A DNA stretch of 64,000 nucleotides from positions 225,469 to 289,468 of the forward strand of contig JAFOFB010000015.1 in the NCBI GenBank assembly GCA_017387505.1, given 5' to 3'. This document shows positions 1,717 to 39,695 of this stretch, in pieces; within the stretch, counting starts at the first letter, position 1; each line of letters opens with the position of its first letter. This DNA is from Methanocorpusculum sp. (GTDB lineage Archaea; Halobacteriota; Methanomicrobia; Methanomicrobiales; Methanocorpusculaceae). A program made the translations under genes and the position numbers. The notes below the pieces were generated by a model. It did no database searches. It had not been told where the DNA came from and saw only the letters and a list, made by a program, of their open reading frames with translations.

Positions 1717-1816
1717 GCGAAAGTGCGTTTTAAGCTTATATGTGGATTTGATTTCAAATCAAATCGATTTGCAGGCTCTAAATTTTAGATTTTTTTGAAG
1801 AGGAGGGCACTTTCGC
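1717..1816. repeat. Widely spaced inverted 10-mer pair upstream of radA
   Basis: GCGAAAGTGC occurs at 1717-1726 and its exact reverse complement GCACTTTCGC at 1807-1816, leaving 80 bp between the arms. The second arm is part of the longer element joined to the radA TATA box. The same pair, in the same orientation and with a 79-bp gap, occurs at 34664-34762 upstream of the putative ncRNA and mutS. This looks like a two-site operator; the binding factor is unknown. Confidence 0.6.
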
Positions 1817-1842
1817 ACCGCGCGGTCAGGGGTTTATATACT
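1805..1842 (+). promoter_or_regulatory. radA promoter with shared 22-bp element and TATA box
   Basis: A 22-bp G+C-rich block (1805-1826) is followed by a TATA box, TTTATATACT, at 1833-1842. Position for position, 35 of 38 bases are identical to 34751-34788. The TATA box predicts a start near 1860, about 30 nt before the radA start codon at 1893. The block sits where BRE and upstream regulator sites lie in archaeal promoters, but it is much longer than a BRE. Confidence 0.65.
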
Positions 1843-34663: not shown

Positions 34664-34762
34664 GCGAAAGTGCAAAGAGAACAATTCCAATGTTAAAATC
34701 CAAAATAAACGTCTCTCATTTCTTCAAAAAATAACATAAAACAAAAAACCGGGCACTTTCGC
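34664..34762. repeat. Widely spaced inverted 10-mer pair upstream of ncRNA/mutS
   Basis: GCGAAAGTGC at 34664-34673 and GCACTTTCGC at 34753-34762, with 79 bp between. This is the same arrangement as 1717-1816 upstream of radA. The intervening sequences are not similar, so only the sites and their spacing are conserved. Confidence 0.6.
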
Positions 34763-34788
34763 ACCGCGCGGTATGGGATTTATATACT
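34751..34788 (+). promoter_or_regulatory. Promoter with the radA-like 22-bp element and TATA box
   Basis: The 22-bp block at 34751-34772 is identical to 1805-1826, and the TATA box TTTATATACT at 34779-34788 is identical to that of radA at the same spacing. The predicted start, about 25 bp downstream, coincides with the 5' end of the folded RNA at 34806. Confidence 0.65.
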
Positions 34789-34805
34789 TGAGAATTGAAT
34801 CATAA

Positions 34806-35099
34806 GATGCCGGCCTAACTAGCTGAGCAGTATAAAGGGAGGTGATATTATTCTCCACATAAGTTTTTTCGTGTTTGGCATTCTTATTGCCTTGTCCCGT
34901 GAAATCAGGGCATGGTATCTGATACTGACCAAAAAACATTGAGGGGTCAAACCCTCATTGTTTTCTCCCTTCATGGGGCTGACAGGCAAATGATTATATC
35001 TCTGGAAGACTAATTATTTGCTGTAAACTTGTGTGGAGTATAACCGGTCGGGAGGAGTAGTTAACCGCCCATTATGACCGGAATCACTTCCTTTCTTTT
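34806..35099 (+). ncRNA. Putative structured non-coding RNA of about 280 nt
   Basis: The region has no convincing reading frame but many long complementary arms. The ends pair: GATGCCGG at 34806-34813 with CCGGAATC at 35078-35085 (7 of 8 bp). A 14-bp helix joins 34853-34866 to 35025-35038 with one G-U pair. Inside it, a 12-bp hairpin joins 34985-34996 to 35011-35022, and a 13-position hairpin with one mismatch joins 34933-34945 to 34952-34964. A competing hairpin, CCGGTC (35044-35049) with GACCGG (35076-35081), shares bases with the terminal helix. A pyrimidine tract at 35087-35099 could terminate it. It lacks the SRP GGAAG-AGCA and RNase P GAGGAAAGUC landmarks. It could instead be the leader of mutS. 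Confidence 0.6.
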
Positions 35100-35253
35100 G
35101 ACGTATTTTCTGTATTCTATTTTCTTTGTTTCCGGGTTTTGTATTGACATGATAATTCAAAACGATTAGTGTGAACTGGTCATGGACAAAGGAACGGGGA
35201 TCCTACACAAACACACAACCCTCTTACCTTCCAAAAGCCAATATTATAACACT

Positions 35254-37857
35254 ATGGCACCTGAAAAAAAGCTCACCCCTGCTATGCAGCAGGTAAAAAT
35301 GTTCAAAGAACAGTATCCTGACTGTATCCTGTTCATGCGCATGGGAGACTTTTACGAAACCTTTTTTGAAGATGCCGAAATATGCTCACGCGAACTTGAC
35401 CTGGTGCTGACATCCCGATCCAAAGACCCCGAAGGAAACCCGATTCCACTCTCCGGAATACCATACCATGCCGTAGACTTATACCTGCCCCGCATGGTTC
35501 GAAAAGGATACAAGGTTGCCATCTGTGAACAGGTAGAAGACCCGAAACAGGCAAAAGGAGTCGTAAAACGCGACGTAATCCGCGTAGTAACGCCAGGCAC
35601 AGCTATAGACGCCGACATAATCCCCGGACAGGGAGCACACTATCTGATGGCGGCAAACCCTGACCTGAAAAAAAATATAATCGGCCTCGCCTTCCTCGAC
35701 ATCACAACAGGTGAATTCTTCATCAAAGAAATACCCGCATCGGAAGGCTTCTCCGCTCTCGCAACAGAAATCGAACGCTACTCACCGCTCGAAATCCTTG
35801 TGCCGCAAGACACTCCGGCAGACTTAATCCCGTTCCTTGCATCAACAGGCCGTGTCATTACTCCGGCACGTTCCATCTTCTTTGACAACGCAGAGCAGAC
35901 CTTATGCGAACAGTTCGGCGTAGCCTCTCTGGATGGATTTGACACAAGCTCAGAGCTTTGCCTCTCTGCTGCGGCGGCGGCCGTCTGTTACAGCAAAGAA
36001 ACACAGAAAGTGTCTCTTTCTCATATCCAGGGCTTCTCGAAAAAGTACGACACTGACGCAATGATTCTCGATGCCGTATCGCTTCGAAACCTGGAAATCC
36101 TAACTCCGCTTAGAGGAGATAGAAACGACACGACACTCTTTGGATTCTTAAACAGAACCAAGACGCCAATGGGGGCCCGCGCCCTTCGCAGCGTCTTAAC
36201 AAGACCATCGACATCTCCATCCGAGATTAACTTACGCCTCGATGCAGTGCAGTACTTTGTCGAGCGTCCGGTGCTTCTCTCATCTGTTCGAAACGTTCTT
36301 GCCCGCCTTTCAGACATTGAGCGTATCGCAGGCCGCATCTCGTATGGAAACGCATCTCCGCGTGACCTGCTCTCGCTGTCCGCAAGTCTTTCCGCGATTC
36401 CAGCCCTATCAGAAGAACTTGCATCCGTCGATGGGCTTCTTCGAGACAAACTCTTAGAGATTCCTGAGTTTGCCGGAATCTCTGACTTAATCCTCTCTGC
36501 AATCGTAGAAGAACCGCCGGTAGTTTACAAAAACGGAAATGTCATTCGCGCAGGCTACAGCGAAGACCTGGATGCACTACGCGACGTTGTTGCAAACGGC
36601 AGAAGCTGGATTGCTGAACTCCAGAACACCGAGCGCGAAAGAACAGGCATCAAGTCATTAAAAATCGCCTACAACAACGTCTTTGGATACTACATCGAAG
36701 TAACGAAAGCAAACTTAGACAAAGTACCGCTTGAGTACGAGCGAAAACAGACAACCGCAAGCGGCGAGCGCTTCACAATCCCTGCACTTCGCGAGCGTGA
36801 AGCACTGATGGCTCAGGCCGATGACCGGATGCTTGCTCTCGAAATCCAGCTCTACGAGGAACTGATTGAAATCCTTCGAGGGTATGTCCGCGAACTTCAG
36901 TCTGCGGCAGCGGCAGTTGGTGTAATCGACAACCTCGCCTCATTTGCCGACCTTGCCTTAACAAATGACTACGTAAGGCCGGAACTTGTCGAAAGCCCCG
37001 AGCTCTTAATCCGCGACGGACGCCATCCGATTGTCGAAGACGCAGTGCCTGGGGGATACGTTCCAAACGACACCGAGATGAGTGCTGTTGAAAAACAGAT
37101 TCTCATCTTAACCGGAGCGAACATGGCGGGTAAATCCACCTACATGCGAAGCGTTGCACTTCTTTCAATAATGGCTCAGACAGGCTCTTTTGTTCCGGCA
37201 CGCTTCGCAAGAGTTGGAATCGTTGACCGCGTGTTTACAAGAGTTGGAGCATCCGATGACTTAGCCGGCGGTCAGAGTACCTTCATGGTCGAGATGTTAG
37301 AGCTTGCAAACATCTTAAACAACGCAACCGAGAGAAGTCTCATCCTCTTAGACGAAATCGGACGCGGAACAAGCACTGTTGACGGATACTCAATCGCACG
37401 CGCTGTTCTCGAGTACCTGCACGGAAAAGGTGCGGCAGGTCCGAGGACACTTTTTGCAACGCACTTCCATCAGCTCATATCTATTGAGAGCGAACTTCGC
37501 CGCGTCAAAAACTACCACTTCGCAGTAAAAGAGGACGCACATGACATCACCTTCCTTAGAAAACTCATCCCCGGAGCGACTGACAGAAGTTACGGTATCC
37601 ATGTCGCAAAGATTGCGGGCGTTCCAAAGAAAGTCTTAACGAGAGCAGAAGAGGTCTTAAAGTCCGCACTCCGCGAGGATGCAGTATCTGGAGGACAGAA
37701 GTACTACACACAGATGCTTCTCTTCGATTCCGCACCTGCAGAAGCAGAGCCGTCAGCGGTCGAAGAGCGCCTGAAAGAAGTCAATCCGAATGATATCACA
37801 CCAATGCAGGCATTAATGCTCGTCAACGAACTCAAAGCCTTAATGGAGAAGAAGTAA
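35254..37857 (+). CDS. mutS: DNA mismatch repair protein MutS
   Basis: An 867-residue MutS1. The mismatch-reading motif FMRMGDFYETFFEDAE (Phe-x-Glu type) is near residue 30. Walker A LTGANMAGKSTYMR is near 617, and the ABC-type stretch DEIGRGTSTVDG near 700 and ATHFHQL near 735 are also present. The frame starts at 35182, but the first 24 residues have no family resemblance, so ATG 35254 (MAPEKKLTPAMQQ) is preferred. The stop overlaps the mutL start by 1 bp. A bacterial-type MutS-MutL pair is patchy in archaea and was probably acquired from bacteria. Confidence 0.95.
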   Translation: MAPEKKLTPAMQQVKMFKEQYPDCILFMRMGDFYETFFEDAEICSRELDLVLTSRSKDPEGNPIPLSGIPYHAVDLYLPRMVRKGYKVAICEQVEDPKQAKGVVKRDVIRVVTPGTAIDADIIPGQGAHYLMAANPDLKKNIIGLAFLDITTGEFFIKEIPASEGFSALATEIERYSPLEILVPQDTPADLIPFLASTGRVITPARSIFFDNAEQTLCEQFGVASLDGFDTSSELCLSAAAAAVCYSKETQKVSLSHIQGFSKKYDTDAMILDAVSLRNLEILTPLRGDRNDTTLFGFLNRTKTPMGARALRSVLTRPSTSPSEINLRLDAVQYFVERPVLLSSVRNVLARLSDIERIAGRISYGNASPRDLLSLSASLSAIPALSEELASVDGLLRDKLLEIPEFAGISDLILSAIVEEPPVVYKNGNVIRAGYSEDLDALRDVVANGRSWIAELQNTERERTGIKSLKIAYNNVFGYYIEVTKANLDKVPLEYERKQTTASGERFTIPALREREALMAQADDRMLALEIQLYEELIEILRGYVRELQSAAAAVGVIDNLASFADLALTNDYVRPELVESPELLIRDGRHPIVEDAVPGGYVPNDTEMSAVEKQILILTGANMAGKSTYMRSVALLSIMAQTGSFVPARFARVGIVDRVFTRVGASDDLAGGQSTFMVEMLELANILNNATERSLILLDEIGRGTSTVDGYSIARAVLEYLHGKGAAGPRTLFATHFHQLISIESELRRVKNYHFAVKEDAHDITFLRKLIPGATDRSYGIHVAKIAGVPKKVLTRAEEVLKSALREDAVSGGQKYYTQMLLFDSAPAEAEPSAVEERLKEVNPNDITPMQALMLVNELKALMEKK

Positions 37858-39695
37858 TGGGAAAAATCCGTGTTCTCGATGAGGAAACAATCAACCACAT
37901 AGCAGCAGGCGAAGTGGTTGAGCGTGCGGCATCTGTGGTCAAGGAGCTTGTCGAAAACGCAGTTGATGCAAAGGCGAAGAAGATTATAATCGACCTCGCC
38001 GCAGACACTGCGACAGTGAAGCGGATTTCCATCACCGACGACGGCGTTGGACTGAGCGCAGAAGACGCAGTTCTCGCATTCCGTCAGCATGCAACAAGCA
38101 AAATCTCAAAGCCCGATGACCTCGCAGAGATTGTAACTCTCGGTTTCAGAGGCGAAGCTTTAGCAAGTATTGCGGCTGTATCCAAAGTCACGTTCACCTC
38201 AAAAGAACGCGGCTCATCAGAACCTGAAGCCGTGCAGGTCGTAATTCACGGCGGTGAACTGATTCGCCAGACCTTTGTCGGAGCGCCGGAAGGAACGACA
38301 ATTATTGTGGAGGATTTGTTCTACAACACCCCGGCACGCCGCAAATTCCAGCGCTCGGTGTCCACAGAGCTTTCGCACATCTATGACATGGTCGAAAGAA
38401 TCGCTCTAGCCCACCGCGAAATATCCTTTGTTCTCCTCTATCAGGGAAAGGAGAGATTTAGAACCTACGGCACAGGCTCTTATCCTGACGCTGTTGCGGC
38501 AGTCTTTGGAACAACCTTCGCCCGCGACCTGCTTCCGGTCGAAAAAACAGGAGGCATCGCCGAGGTATCAGGTTATGTTTCAAAGCCCGGATGCAATATG
38601 CGCCCAACTCCTACCCGCTTCTATCTGACAATCAACGGCCGCCAGATTACATCCAAGTCTCTTCAGTGGGCTGTTCGCGAAGGGTACGGCACGCTTCTTC
38701 CAAAGGGCATGTATCCTGCTGCTTTTTTAGACATCAAAATCGACCCGCGCGAAGTGGATGTCAACGTACATCCGACCAAACGCGAGGTGCGCCTTTCAAG
38801 AGAAAGGGATGTGGGTTCAGCAGTTCGAGACGCCGTATATACTGCTCTTCATGATGACGAAATCTTCTCCGCAGCTCCTGCATCGGTAAAGCCTGAACAG
38901 CAGAAACTCTTCGAGGAAAAGAAAGAGGAGGAAGCAGAAGTGCGTGCGGAAAAGACATATGTGCCTGCAGAGCAGACTCCATCTCCAAAACGCAGCCTGC
39001 ATGAAGCTGTCATGTCTTATCTGACACCGCAGGCACCGGCAGAGCCTGTCCGCTCATCTCTTCGCCAGACCGAGATTCAGTTAAGGCGTACTGAGACTTC
39101 GGCAGAGGAAAAGGCAGACGTTGAAGTGCCTGAGGTCTTAGGACAGATAGGGGACACATACATCGCCTGCCGGAATGCGAAGGGTGAGCTTGTAATCGTA
39201 GATCAGCATGCAGCACACGAGCGTGTAATGTACGATCAGCTCTTAAAGAAAGTCGAGGAAAAGAAGGCATCTCAGGAACTCTTAGCACCTGTAACACTCA
39301 CACTATCTCGGGCAGAATCTGCACGCATGCCTGAACTTTCGGAAATCTTAGCACAGGCAGGTTATGTAATCGAACCATTCGGTCAGGATGTCTGGGCTGT
39401 TCGTTCGGTTCCTGTAATCTCATCAAGACTTGGTGATGTAAAAGTCATTCACGAAATTATCGCCGAAGCCGCAGGCATCACTGAGAAAAACCCAGAGCGT
39501 GTATTAGATAGGGTTGTAAAAACTGTTGCCTGCCGTGCTGTTGTTAAAGGAAACACGCCTCTTACCAAAAACCAGATGGAGCGTCTCTTAAGACAGCTTT
39601 CGGAGACTGATTCACCTTATACATGTCCTCACGGAAGACCTACAGCGCTTGTTCTCTCGAAGGAAAAACTCGCCTCAATGTTTCTTAGGACTTGA
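37857..39695 (+). CDS. mutL: DNA mismatch repair protein MutL
   Basis: A 612-residue GHKL ATPase that couples mismatch recognition to strand incision. The N-terminal ATPase motifs VKELVENAVDA near residue 28, DDGVGL near 60 and GFRGEALASI near 98 are intact. A low-complexity acidic linker spans about 340-410. The C-terminal domain has the metal motif DQHAAHE near 447, ACRAVVKGN near 560 and CPHGRPT near 592, so endonuclease activity is expected, consistent with no MutH. The last Glu of DQHA-X2-E-X4-E is Asp here. Confidence 0.95.
   Translation: MGKIRVLDEETINHIAAGEVVERAASVVKELVENAVDAKAKKIIIDLAADTATVKRISITDDGVGLSAEDAVLAFRQHATSKISKPDDLAEIVTLGFRGEALASIAAVSKVTFTSKERGSSEPEAVQVVIHGGELIRQTFVGAPEGTTIIVEDLFYNTPARRKFQRSVSTELSHIYDMVERIALAHREISFVLLYQGKERFRTYGTGSYPDAVAAVFGTTFARDLLPVEKTGGIAEVSGYVSKPGCNMRPTPTRFYLTINGRQITSKSLQWAVREGYGTLLPKGMYPAAFLDIKIDPREVDVNVHPTKREVRLSRERDVGSAVRDAVYTALHDDEIFSAAPASVKPEQQKLFEEKKEEEAEVRAEKTYVPAEQTPSPKRSLHEAVMSYLTPQAPAEPVRSSLRQTEIQLRRTETSAEEKADVEVPEVLGQIGDTYIACRNAKGELVIVDQHAAHERVMYDQLLKKVEEKKASQELLAPVTLTLSRAESARMPELSEILAQAGYVIEPFGQDVWAVRSVPVISSRLGDVKVIHEIIAEAAGITEKNPERVLDRVVKTVACRAVVKGNTPLTKNQMERLLRQLSETDSPYTCPHGRPTALVLSKEKLASMFLRT

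What the first reader, a model, noticed from the sequence alone, without database searches (positions are those of the whole stretch)
34806..35099. Structured approximately 280-nt RNA of no recognised class
The predicted transcription start from a strong TATA box falls exactly at the 5' strand of a helix that pairs with 35078-35085. Inside are 14-bp, 12-bp and 13-position helices, with no reading frame and a pyrimidine tract at the end. SRP and RNase P landmarks are missing. A hairpin at 35044-35081 competes with the terminal helix, so the RNA might switch between folds. It shares its promoter element with radA.
Basis: partly seen in the sequence, partly recalled or inferred. Interest (0 to 1): 0.8.

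Follow-up and report, generated by a model that had tools for sequence, protein, structure and literature searches.

The report
Archaeal toxin-like gene with antisense RNA
What looked like one mysterious folded RNA in a methane-making gut archaeon is more likely a pair of tiny genes, one for a 30-residue membrane peptide and one for an RNA tailored to silence it, a layout known from bacterial self-poisoning systems.

Summary
The fold is real (z -6.0, no Rfam match), but the interpretation changes. The element is a multicopy family in Methanocorpusculum: 42 copies of its 3' unit in 8 of 25 genus genomes, none elsewhere in the order. A terminator-like hairpin overlaps the stop. The 3' third has its own TATA element and encodes an RNA with 16-21 bp complementarity to its own ORF start, a hairpin whose loop pairs with the 5' leader loop (strong covariation), and an anti-Shine-Dalgarno segment. 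In 25 of 25 copies the private complementarity (mean -25.1 kcal/mol) beats every differing copy's. Solo 3' units exist, and in two genomes a transposon separates the units. The 5' promoter carries a box shared with radA, an RPA-like gene and two further repair-type genes.

Best reading: a type I toxin-antitoxin-like module with a tandem, same-strand antisense RNA, probably DNA-damage inducible; my searches found none described in Archaea. Transcription, toxicity and repression are inferred, not shown.

The parts
34664..34673 (+). GCGAAAGTGC, inverted copy of the upstream box, about 120 nt before the end of the TATA box
   Evidence: sequence; an inverted copy at a similar distance (-123 to -125, in two loci -158/-159) was found before 10 of 12 box sites in G002 and G018; none was found at the 8 G014 sites
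34753..34772 (+). upstream box GCACTTTCG-N5/6-CGCGGT, shared with radA and other repair-type genes
34779..34786 (+). TATA box TTTATATA of unit 1; predicted start about 34806-34809
   Evidence: sequence; conserved in most copies
34809..34827 (+). 5' hairpin H1 with loop UAACUA (34816-34821)
   Evidence: covariation of the stem; of the loop with 35058-35063
34838..34846 (+). Shine-Dalgarno GGAGGTGAT
   Evidence: pairs with 35084-35091 in 95.1% of cells
34850..34942 (+). 30-codon peptide ORF, proposed start ATT, stop TGA; hydrophobic peptide ending SREIRAWYLILTKKH
34933..34964 (+). terminator-like hairpin followed by U-rich stretch
   Evidence: (8 of 12 pairs with compensatory changes)
34984..34999 (+). 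internal promoter of unit 2: AGGCAAATGATTATAT
   Evidence: TATA invariant in 23 aligned rows, TATA-like in 40 of 40 units, kept in solo units
35025..35105 (+). unit 2: predicted antisense RNA (ends approximate)
   Evidence: spacing from TATA; covariance-model hits to the region
35027..35043 (+). antisense segment, pairs with about 34847-34866 (start codon and first codons)
   Evidence: -21.4 kcal/mol for this copy, mean -25.1 over 25 copies, non-cognate mean -8.1
35044..35081 (+). hairpin H2, loop UAGUUA (35058-35063) kisses the H1 loop
35082..35091 (+). anti-Shine-Dalgarno segment AATCACTTCC
35092..35126 (+). pyrimidine/U-rich end, likely archaeal-type termination
   Evidence: sequence, conserved in type across copies

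Best explanation
The locus is a type I toxin-antitoxin-like module made of two transcription units on the same strand. Unit 1 (about 34807-34967) is a short mRNA: 5' hairpin H1, near-perfect Shine-Dalgarno, non-AUG start, a 30-residue membrane peptide with a basic end, and a terminator-like hairpin. Unit 2 (about 35025-35105), from its own TATA promoter, is an antisense RNA: its 5' tail pairs with the start codon and first codons, its hairpin loop kisses the H1 loop, and its 3' end covers the Shine-Dalgarno. Normally the antisense RNA keeps the peptide untranslated. The box upstream of unit 1, shared with radA and other repair-type genes, would raise the mRNA above the antisense RNA after DNA damage, so that the peptide is made and acts on the membrane. 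Read-through RNA would be silenced by the same pairing in cis. Shown at sequence level: the family, conservation of the ORF, private complementarity, covariation, internal TATA element, solo 3' units, shared box. Inferred: separate transcripts, repression, induction, membrane location, toxicity.
For: Purifying selection and hydrophobicity of one frame only. Private 16-21 bp antisense pairing in 25 of 25 copies although target segments share only 36% identity. Kissing-loop covariation: 25 cells changed on both sides against 7.4 in shuffles, 0 of 500 shuffles reach the covariation score. Hairpin covariation. TATA-like element before the antisense segment in 40 of 40 units examined. Seven solo 3' units of 42, unrelated DNA upstream but TATA kept. 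In G002 and G018 a transposon lies between the two units, which still match at -29.6 kcal/mol. Patchy, multicopy spread within one genus. Box shared with radA, an RPA-like gene and others. Parallel to TisB/IstR-1, a 29-residue SOS-induced toxin with an antisense RNA (PMC4147584 passages), and to solo orz antitoxins in E. coli (PMC11264685 passages).
Against: No expression or toxicity data. The non-AUG start is unusual; the ORF start is inferred. In 3 of 25 copies the frame is also open from an AUG at the RNA's 5' end. Complementarity and covariation are equally expected from pairing within one long RNA. SD/anti-SD pairing shows no covariation beyond chance. The isolated 80-nt unit 2 folds no better than shuffles (z -0.27). 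In predicted folds the SD is only partly open in the mRNA alone (mean 0.43 unpaired against 0.21 in the full-length RNA). Four of seven solo units match no known peptide gene better than -18.8 kcal/mol. Not all copies have the repair box. No similarity to any known toxin family.
Confidence: 0.7

Rival explanations
1. One ~290-nt self-silencing mRNA: the 3' part is a cis-acting fold-back element, as in hok mRNA, and no separate antisense RNA exists. The peptide is made after 3' processing or a change of fold.
For: Full-length RNA folds extremely well and buries the SD on average (0.21 unpaired); all pairings are possible in cis; most 3' units sit directly behind their 5' unit.
Against: Terminator-like hairpin between the parts, invariant internal TATA, seven solo 3' units with TATA kept, and transposon-split pairs.
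Confidence: 0.15
2. The same RNA-controlled layout, but the peptide is a regulated beneficial small membrane protein or secreted antimicrobial peptide, not a self-toxin.
For: No toxicity data; DNA-damage-type promoter box.
Against: Many private copies, patchy presence, solo antisense units that match peptide genes of other genomes and decay of copies fit an addiction or toxin logic better. No signal peptide visible by eye.
Confidence: 0.1
3. A CreTA-like module: the toxin is an RNA and the 3' unit is a CRISPR-like guide.
For: RNA-controlled modules of this kind exist in archaea (abstract starts); the 3' unit has a variable ~18-nt part beside a constant hairpin.
Against: The complementarity lies at the ORF start, not in the promoter; the hairpin loop covaries with the mRNA leader loop; the peptide is under selection. 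Repeat-like flanks and Cas dependence were not tested.
Confidence: 0.02

Closest known systems
TisB/IstR-1, E. coli type I toxin-antitoxin
   Same: About 30-residue hydrophobic peptide; antisense RNA with about 20 nt of complementarity; toxin under the DNA-damage regulon while the RNA is not (PMC4147584 passages)
   Different: IstR-1 is divergently encoded and binds a standby site in the 5' UTR; here the RNA is encoded downstream on the same strand and covers SD, start and first codons, with a kissing loop. No sequence relation.
hok/sok
   Same: Multicopy; structured toxin mRNA with possible fold-back of its 3' end (PMC4147584 passages)
   Different: Sok overlaps on the opposite strand and acts through mok; peptide unrelated
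zor/orz
   Same: Antisense RNA not encoded opposite the toxin; solo antitoxin genes exist (PMC11264685 passages)
   Different: Divergent layout, E. coli, unrelated sequences
CreTA
   Same: RNA-controlled toxin module reported in archaea (abstract starts)
   Different: RNA toxin repressed at transcription by a CRISPR-like guide with Cascade

Membership tests
Type I toxin-antitoxin | Toxin gene encodes a small (<60 residues) hydrophobic peptide | tested here: met
   30 residues, mean hydropathy +1.99 over the first 17 codons (+0.10 and -0.53 in the other frames), synonymous bias
Type I toxin-antitoxin | Antitoxin RNA is complementary to the toxin mRNA | tested here: met
   16-21 bp private complementarity in 25 of 25 copies
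Type I toxin-antitoxin | Antitoxin is a separate RNA | tested here: inconclusive
   Internal TATA, solo and split units support it; no transcript data
Type I toxin-antitoxin | Peptide is toxic when expressed | not testable with these tools
   needs experiment
Type I toxin-antitoxin | RNA blocks translation or triggers decay of the mRNA | not testable with these tools
   needs experiment; predicted duplex covers SD and start
Known type I toxin protein families | Sequence match to a library model | tested here: not met
   4 peptides: 0 Pfam and 0 NCBIfam hits at E<=10; 26 peptides: PADLOC 0, Pfam five single-member hits at E 0.049-0.17, PDB 0
Rfam families | Match at gathering score | tested here: not met
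   0 in 64 kb
CreTA | Guide segment matches the toxin promoter | tested here: not met
   It matches the ORF start
CreTA | CRISPR repeat-like flanks, Cascade dependence | not tested
   no search made for repeats or cas genes

The most novel reading that the evidence does not exclude
A type I toxin-antitoxin family native to Archaea with a new layout: a tandem same-strand antisense RNA that combines an antisense tail, a kissing hairpin and an anti-Shine-Dalgarno resembling the 16S rRNA tail; non-AUG toxin starts behind a near-perfect Shine-Dalgarno; private specificities among up to 11 antisense units per genome; solo antitoxin genes that match toxins of other strains; and placement in an archaeal DNA-damage regulon, convergent with SOS-driven TisB.
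Probability: 0.6. Interest if true: 0.93.

Novelty: new variant of a known kind. Interest (0 to 1): 0.87.

Why it matters
A 2025 paper states that type I systems were known only from Proteobacteria, Firmicutes and Tenericutes and reports the first cyanobacterial case (PMC12390103, passages). An archaeal family would carry the principle into another domain of life, and its many orthogonal copies are a natural library for how antisense specificity evolves. The shared box makes a methanogen DNA-damage regulon directly testable, and suggests that archaea, like E. coli, attach silenced membrane peptides to it. The consistent non-AUG starts raise a question about archaeal translation initiation.

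Tried and rejected
Rfam: nothing at threshold and only chance-level hits below it. tRNA/tmRNA: none in the window. Carriers: no match in IMG/VR by a DNA pattern, nor in PLSDB or INPHARED by blastn. Wider spread: the peptide profile matched 9 of 232 genomes of the order, all in the genus; the RNA model matched 8 of 231, all in the genus (with stricter filters). An empty-site comparison at the prefoldin-mutS junction failed: my mutS motif was found in 1 of 24 loci, the window's own; the motif was narrow, so absence elsewhere is not shown. A first box pattern was mis-spaced and found nothing, corrected. The TATA-to-initiator distances printed are partly wrong because the initiator pattern caught earlier matches in some rows; I use that call only for the presence of a TATA-like element and for the duplex energies. 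In one search the non-cognate minimum of -29.0 comes from a sample of 96 pairs that kept near-identical copies as non-cognate; one search excludes partners whose target is 90% or more identical. Structure prediction was not used: a 30-residue helix would say little.

Rows dropped before counts: searches use 25 copies. One search listed 34 peptide hits; four were left out of the alignment (one ORF tail cut by a contig end, three distant relatives), and five of the remaining 30 were left out (two cut by a contig end, two split by a transposon, one degenerate). Covariation counts use 23 rows (two near-identical copies left out). One search examined 40 units for a TATA element: the 25 paired ones and 15 others; G000_C21 and the fused copy G009:C14:125158 were left out of the 42.

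Full report
WHERE. The genome is a Methanocorpusculum: contigs of its same-genus relatives G002, G018 and G023 have the same lengths as contigs of records named Methanocorpusculum sp. from goat and water-deer gut. The element lies between a prefoldin gene and mutS (Pfam).

OBSERVATION. The + strand of 34806-35099 folds far better than shuffles (z -6.0). The complement does too, as expected of long inverted repeats (z -4.1). No Rfam family fits.

A FAMILY. blastn with 34700-35190 matched 21 of 61 genomes, but many of these matches are the promoter box alone; long copies are in the window's genome and a few relatives. A peptide profile from 19 copies matched 9 of 25 genus genomes, two of them (G004, G006) only weakly at E about 0.001-0.002, and none of the other genomes among 232 of the order. 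A covariance model of the 3' third matched 42 places in 8 of 25 genus genomes (11 in the window's genome, 11 in G002, 6 in G018, 5 in G006, 3 each in G008 and G009, 2 in G023, 1 in G010) and in the order only those 8 of 231. The two single-contig genomes of the genus, G014 and G016, have none.

UNIT 1, THE PEPTIDE. A Shine-Dalgarno of the form GGAGGTGAT (with small variations) precedes a frame of about 30 codons. In the 25 full copies the codon 5-6 nt after GGTG is AUA (10), AUC (8), AUU (5), ACG (1) or CUG (1); three near-identical copies also have an AUG one codon earlier. In three distant copies of G006 about the same place holds GUG, UUG or AUG (read). The start is inferred from position, not shown; since isoleucine is an ordinary residue too, this is a caveat. 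Codon differences lean to synonymous changes: 809 of 1115 single-base codon differences in the last 12 codons and 391 of 781 in the 9 codons before (24 distinct stretches, all pairs). The frame is hydrophobic (mean +1.99, against +0.10 and -0.53 out of frame) and ends in an SREIRxWYQLLKKK-like basic tail; E and R are invariant in 26 aligned peptides, S and W nearly so. No family or structure match was found. The stop codon sits inside a hairpin with 8 of 12 pairs compensated, followed by U's: terminator-like.

UNIT 2, THE ANTISENSE RNA. After the hairpin comes an AGGnAAA-TATA element (TATA invariant in 23 rows; TATA-like in 40 of 40 units), then about 27 nt further a TGTAA-like stretch, the predicted start of an RNA. 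Its first ~18 nt pair with the copy's own start codon and first codons: 16-21 bp, -19.2 to -29.9 kcal/mol, mean -25.1, against -8.1 for non-cognate pairs. No non-cognate is better in any of the 25 copies, and the cognate beats every copy with a differing target by at least 6.9 kcal/mol although targets share only 36% identity on average. A hairpin follows whose six loop bases pair with the leader loop: 96.4% of cells paired, 25 cells changed on both sides (7.4 in shuffles), covariation score 0.482 against 0.161, 0 of 500 shuffles as high; sliding by 1-3 columns destroys it. Loop pairs include UAACUA/UAGUUA, UAAUGA/UCAUUA, UAACGA/UCGUUA, UAACAA/UUGUUA and UUACCA/UGGUAA; four rows have a mismatch at one position and one row at another. 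The last part, AUCACCUCC-like, can cover the SD; it pairs in 95.1% of cells but without covariation beyond chance, as expected if the SD is fixed by the ribosome. One subgroup has SD GGAGGTGGA with TCCACCTC. Against a strong independent fold of unit 2: the 80-nt stretch 35027-35106 folds no better than shuffles.

TWO UNITS OR ONE? Of the 42 3' units, 25 follow a full 5' unit. Three more in G006 and one in G008 (ORF disrupted) also follow one; one follows an ORF tail at a contig start (G002:C15:82) and one a degenerate ORF (G000:C21); two are separated from it by a transposon (G002:C39, G018:C3); seven are solo (G000:C5:140174, G000:C14:331, G002:C17:36698, G002:C14:999, G002:C49:6265, G018:C9:57707, G006:C225); one is a deletion fusion (G009:C14:125158) and one lies near a contig end (G006:C83) (my reading). 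The solo units keep a TATA-like element while the DNA above it differs. In G002 and G018 an insert of about 4.7 kb sits between the terminator hairpin and the 3' unit's promoter; in G002, where I read it, it holds two DDE transposase genes. The two halves still match at -29.6 kcal/mol in both. In G018 that peptide has lost its otherwise conserved Trp. Three of the seven solo units match a known peptide gene strongly (-28.1, -25.0, -21.2), each time one in another genome; the other four do not (-13.7 to -18.8). The assemblies are incomplete, so absence of the partner is provisional.

CONTROL. The 5' promoter of the window copy carries GCACTTTCG-N5-CGCGGT-NN-GGG-N-TTTATATA. The genome has 12 such sites at up to 3 mismatches, backward-read control 0: four before copies of this family; one each before radA (NCBIfam equivalog), an RPA-like gene, a gene that matches rSAM_link_UDG below its cut-off, and a gene that I read by eye as HhH plus RNase-H-like (0 NCBIfam hits); four with no convincing long ORF. 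By eye the same four repair-type genes follow the motif in G002 and G018, and in G014, with a variant box, although G014 has no copies of the family. In one search, 15 of 34 copies show CACTTTCG somewhere upstream; others have plain promoters. That the box means DNA-damage induction is my inference from its genes. The Sulfolobus UV motif A(N)TTTC (PMC5817253, passages) also fits ACTTTC, which may be chance.

COMPARISON. By function it most resembles TisB/IstR-1 (PMC4147584, passages); solo antitoxin genes have a precedent in orz (PMC11264685, passages). That type I systems were known only from three bacterial phyla before one cyanobacterial case is from PMC12390103 (passages). My searches for archaeal type I systems and for Methanocorpusculum small RNAs or toxin-antitoxins (listings and abstract starts only) showed none; most subscription journals and preprints are not covered.

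VERDICT. The architecture is strongly supported by sequence; transcription, toxicity and regulation await experiment.

Noticed in passing
L165 and L174, from 1501 on (G000:C4:31971, G000:C22:74098): Two near-identical stretches without a convincing ORF behind the same repair-type promoter box, containing GTAGCCGGGGTGAAGCTACCCGGTTGCAG: perhaps a second small RNA of the regulon; no Rfam match.
   Followed up: partly
L171, L187, L179 (G000:C14:316891, G002:C22:50098, G018:C1:27199): Behind the same box, a conserved stretch CACCCCTCGGGAGCGAGAGTCTCTAACAGTGCCC...GGCACATTACGAACCCGCTTCCAAACCCC in three genomes, no convincing ORF, no Rfam match: candidate small RNA.
   Followed up: partly
window 1807-1840 and G002, G014, G018: A promoter box that marks radA, an RPA-like gene, a radical-SAM repair-type gene and an HhH/RNase-H-like gene across the genus, often with an inverted copy ~120 nt upstream: a candidate DNA-damage regulon.
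   Followed up: partly
L047, L044, L157 (G002:C14:999, G002:C17:36698, G000:C14:331): Three solo antisense units directly follow small genes that by eye look RelB/DinJ-like (one) or GxxExxY-like (two).
   Followed up: no
L164 (G009:C14:125158): A deletion derivative in which the leader, SD and a few codons are fused to the antisense segment, losing ORF and internal promoter.
   Followed up: no
L101, L103, L111 (G000:C15:553, G002:C54:22020, G009:C10:4117): Distant relatives of the peptide with an AUG and no recognisable 3' unit.
   Followed up: no
L032, L033, L057: In three copies the peptide frame is also open from an AUG at the very 5' end of the predicted mRNA (MPASPTGQ..., MPVRPAG..., MPGVMTLS...): possible leaderless longer form.
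   Followed up: no
window 35182-39695: mutS and a mutL-like gene lie behind the element; my narrow mutS motif was found next to the prefoldin gene in 1 of 24 loci, so the gene order here may be recent.
   Followed up: partly
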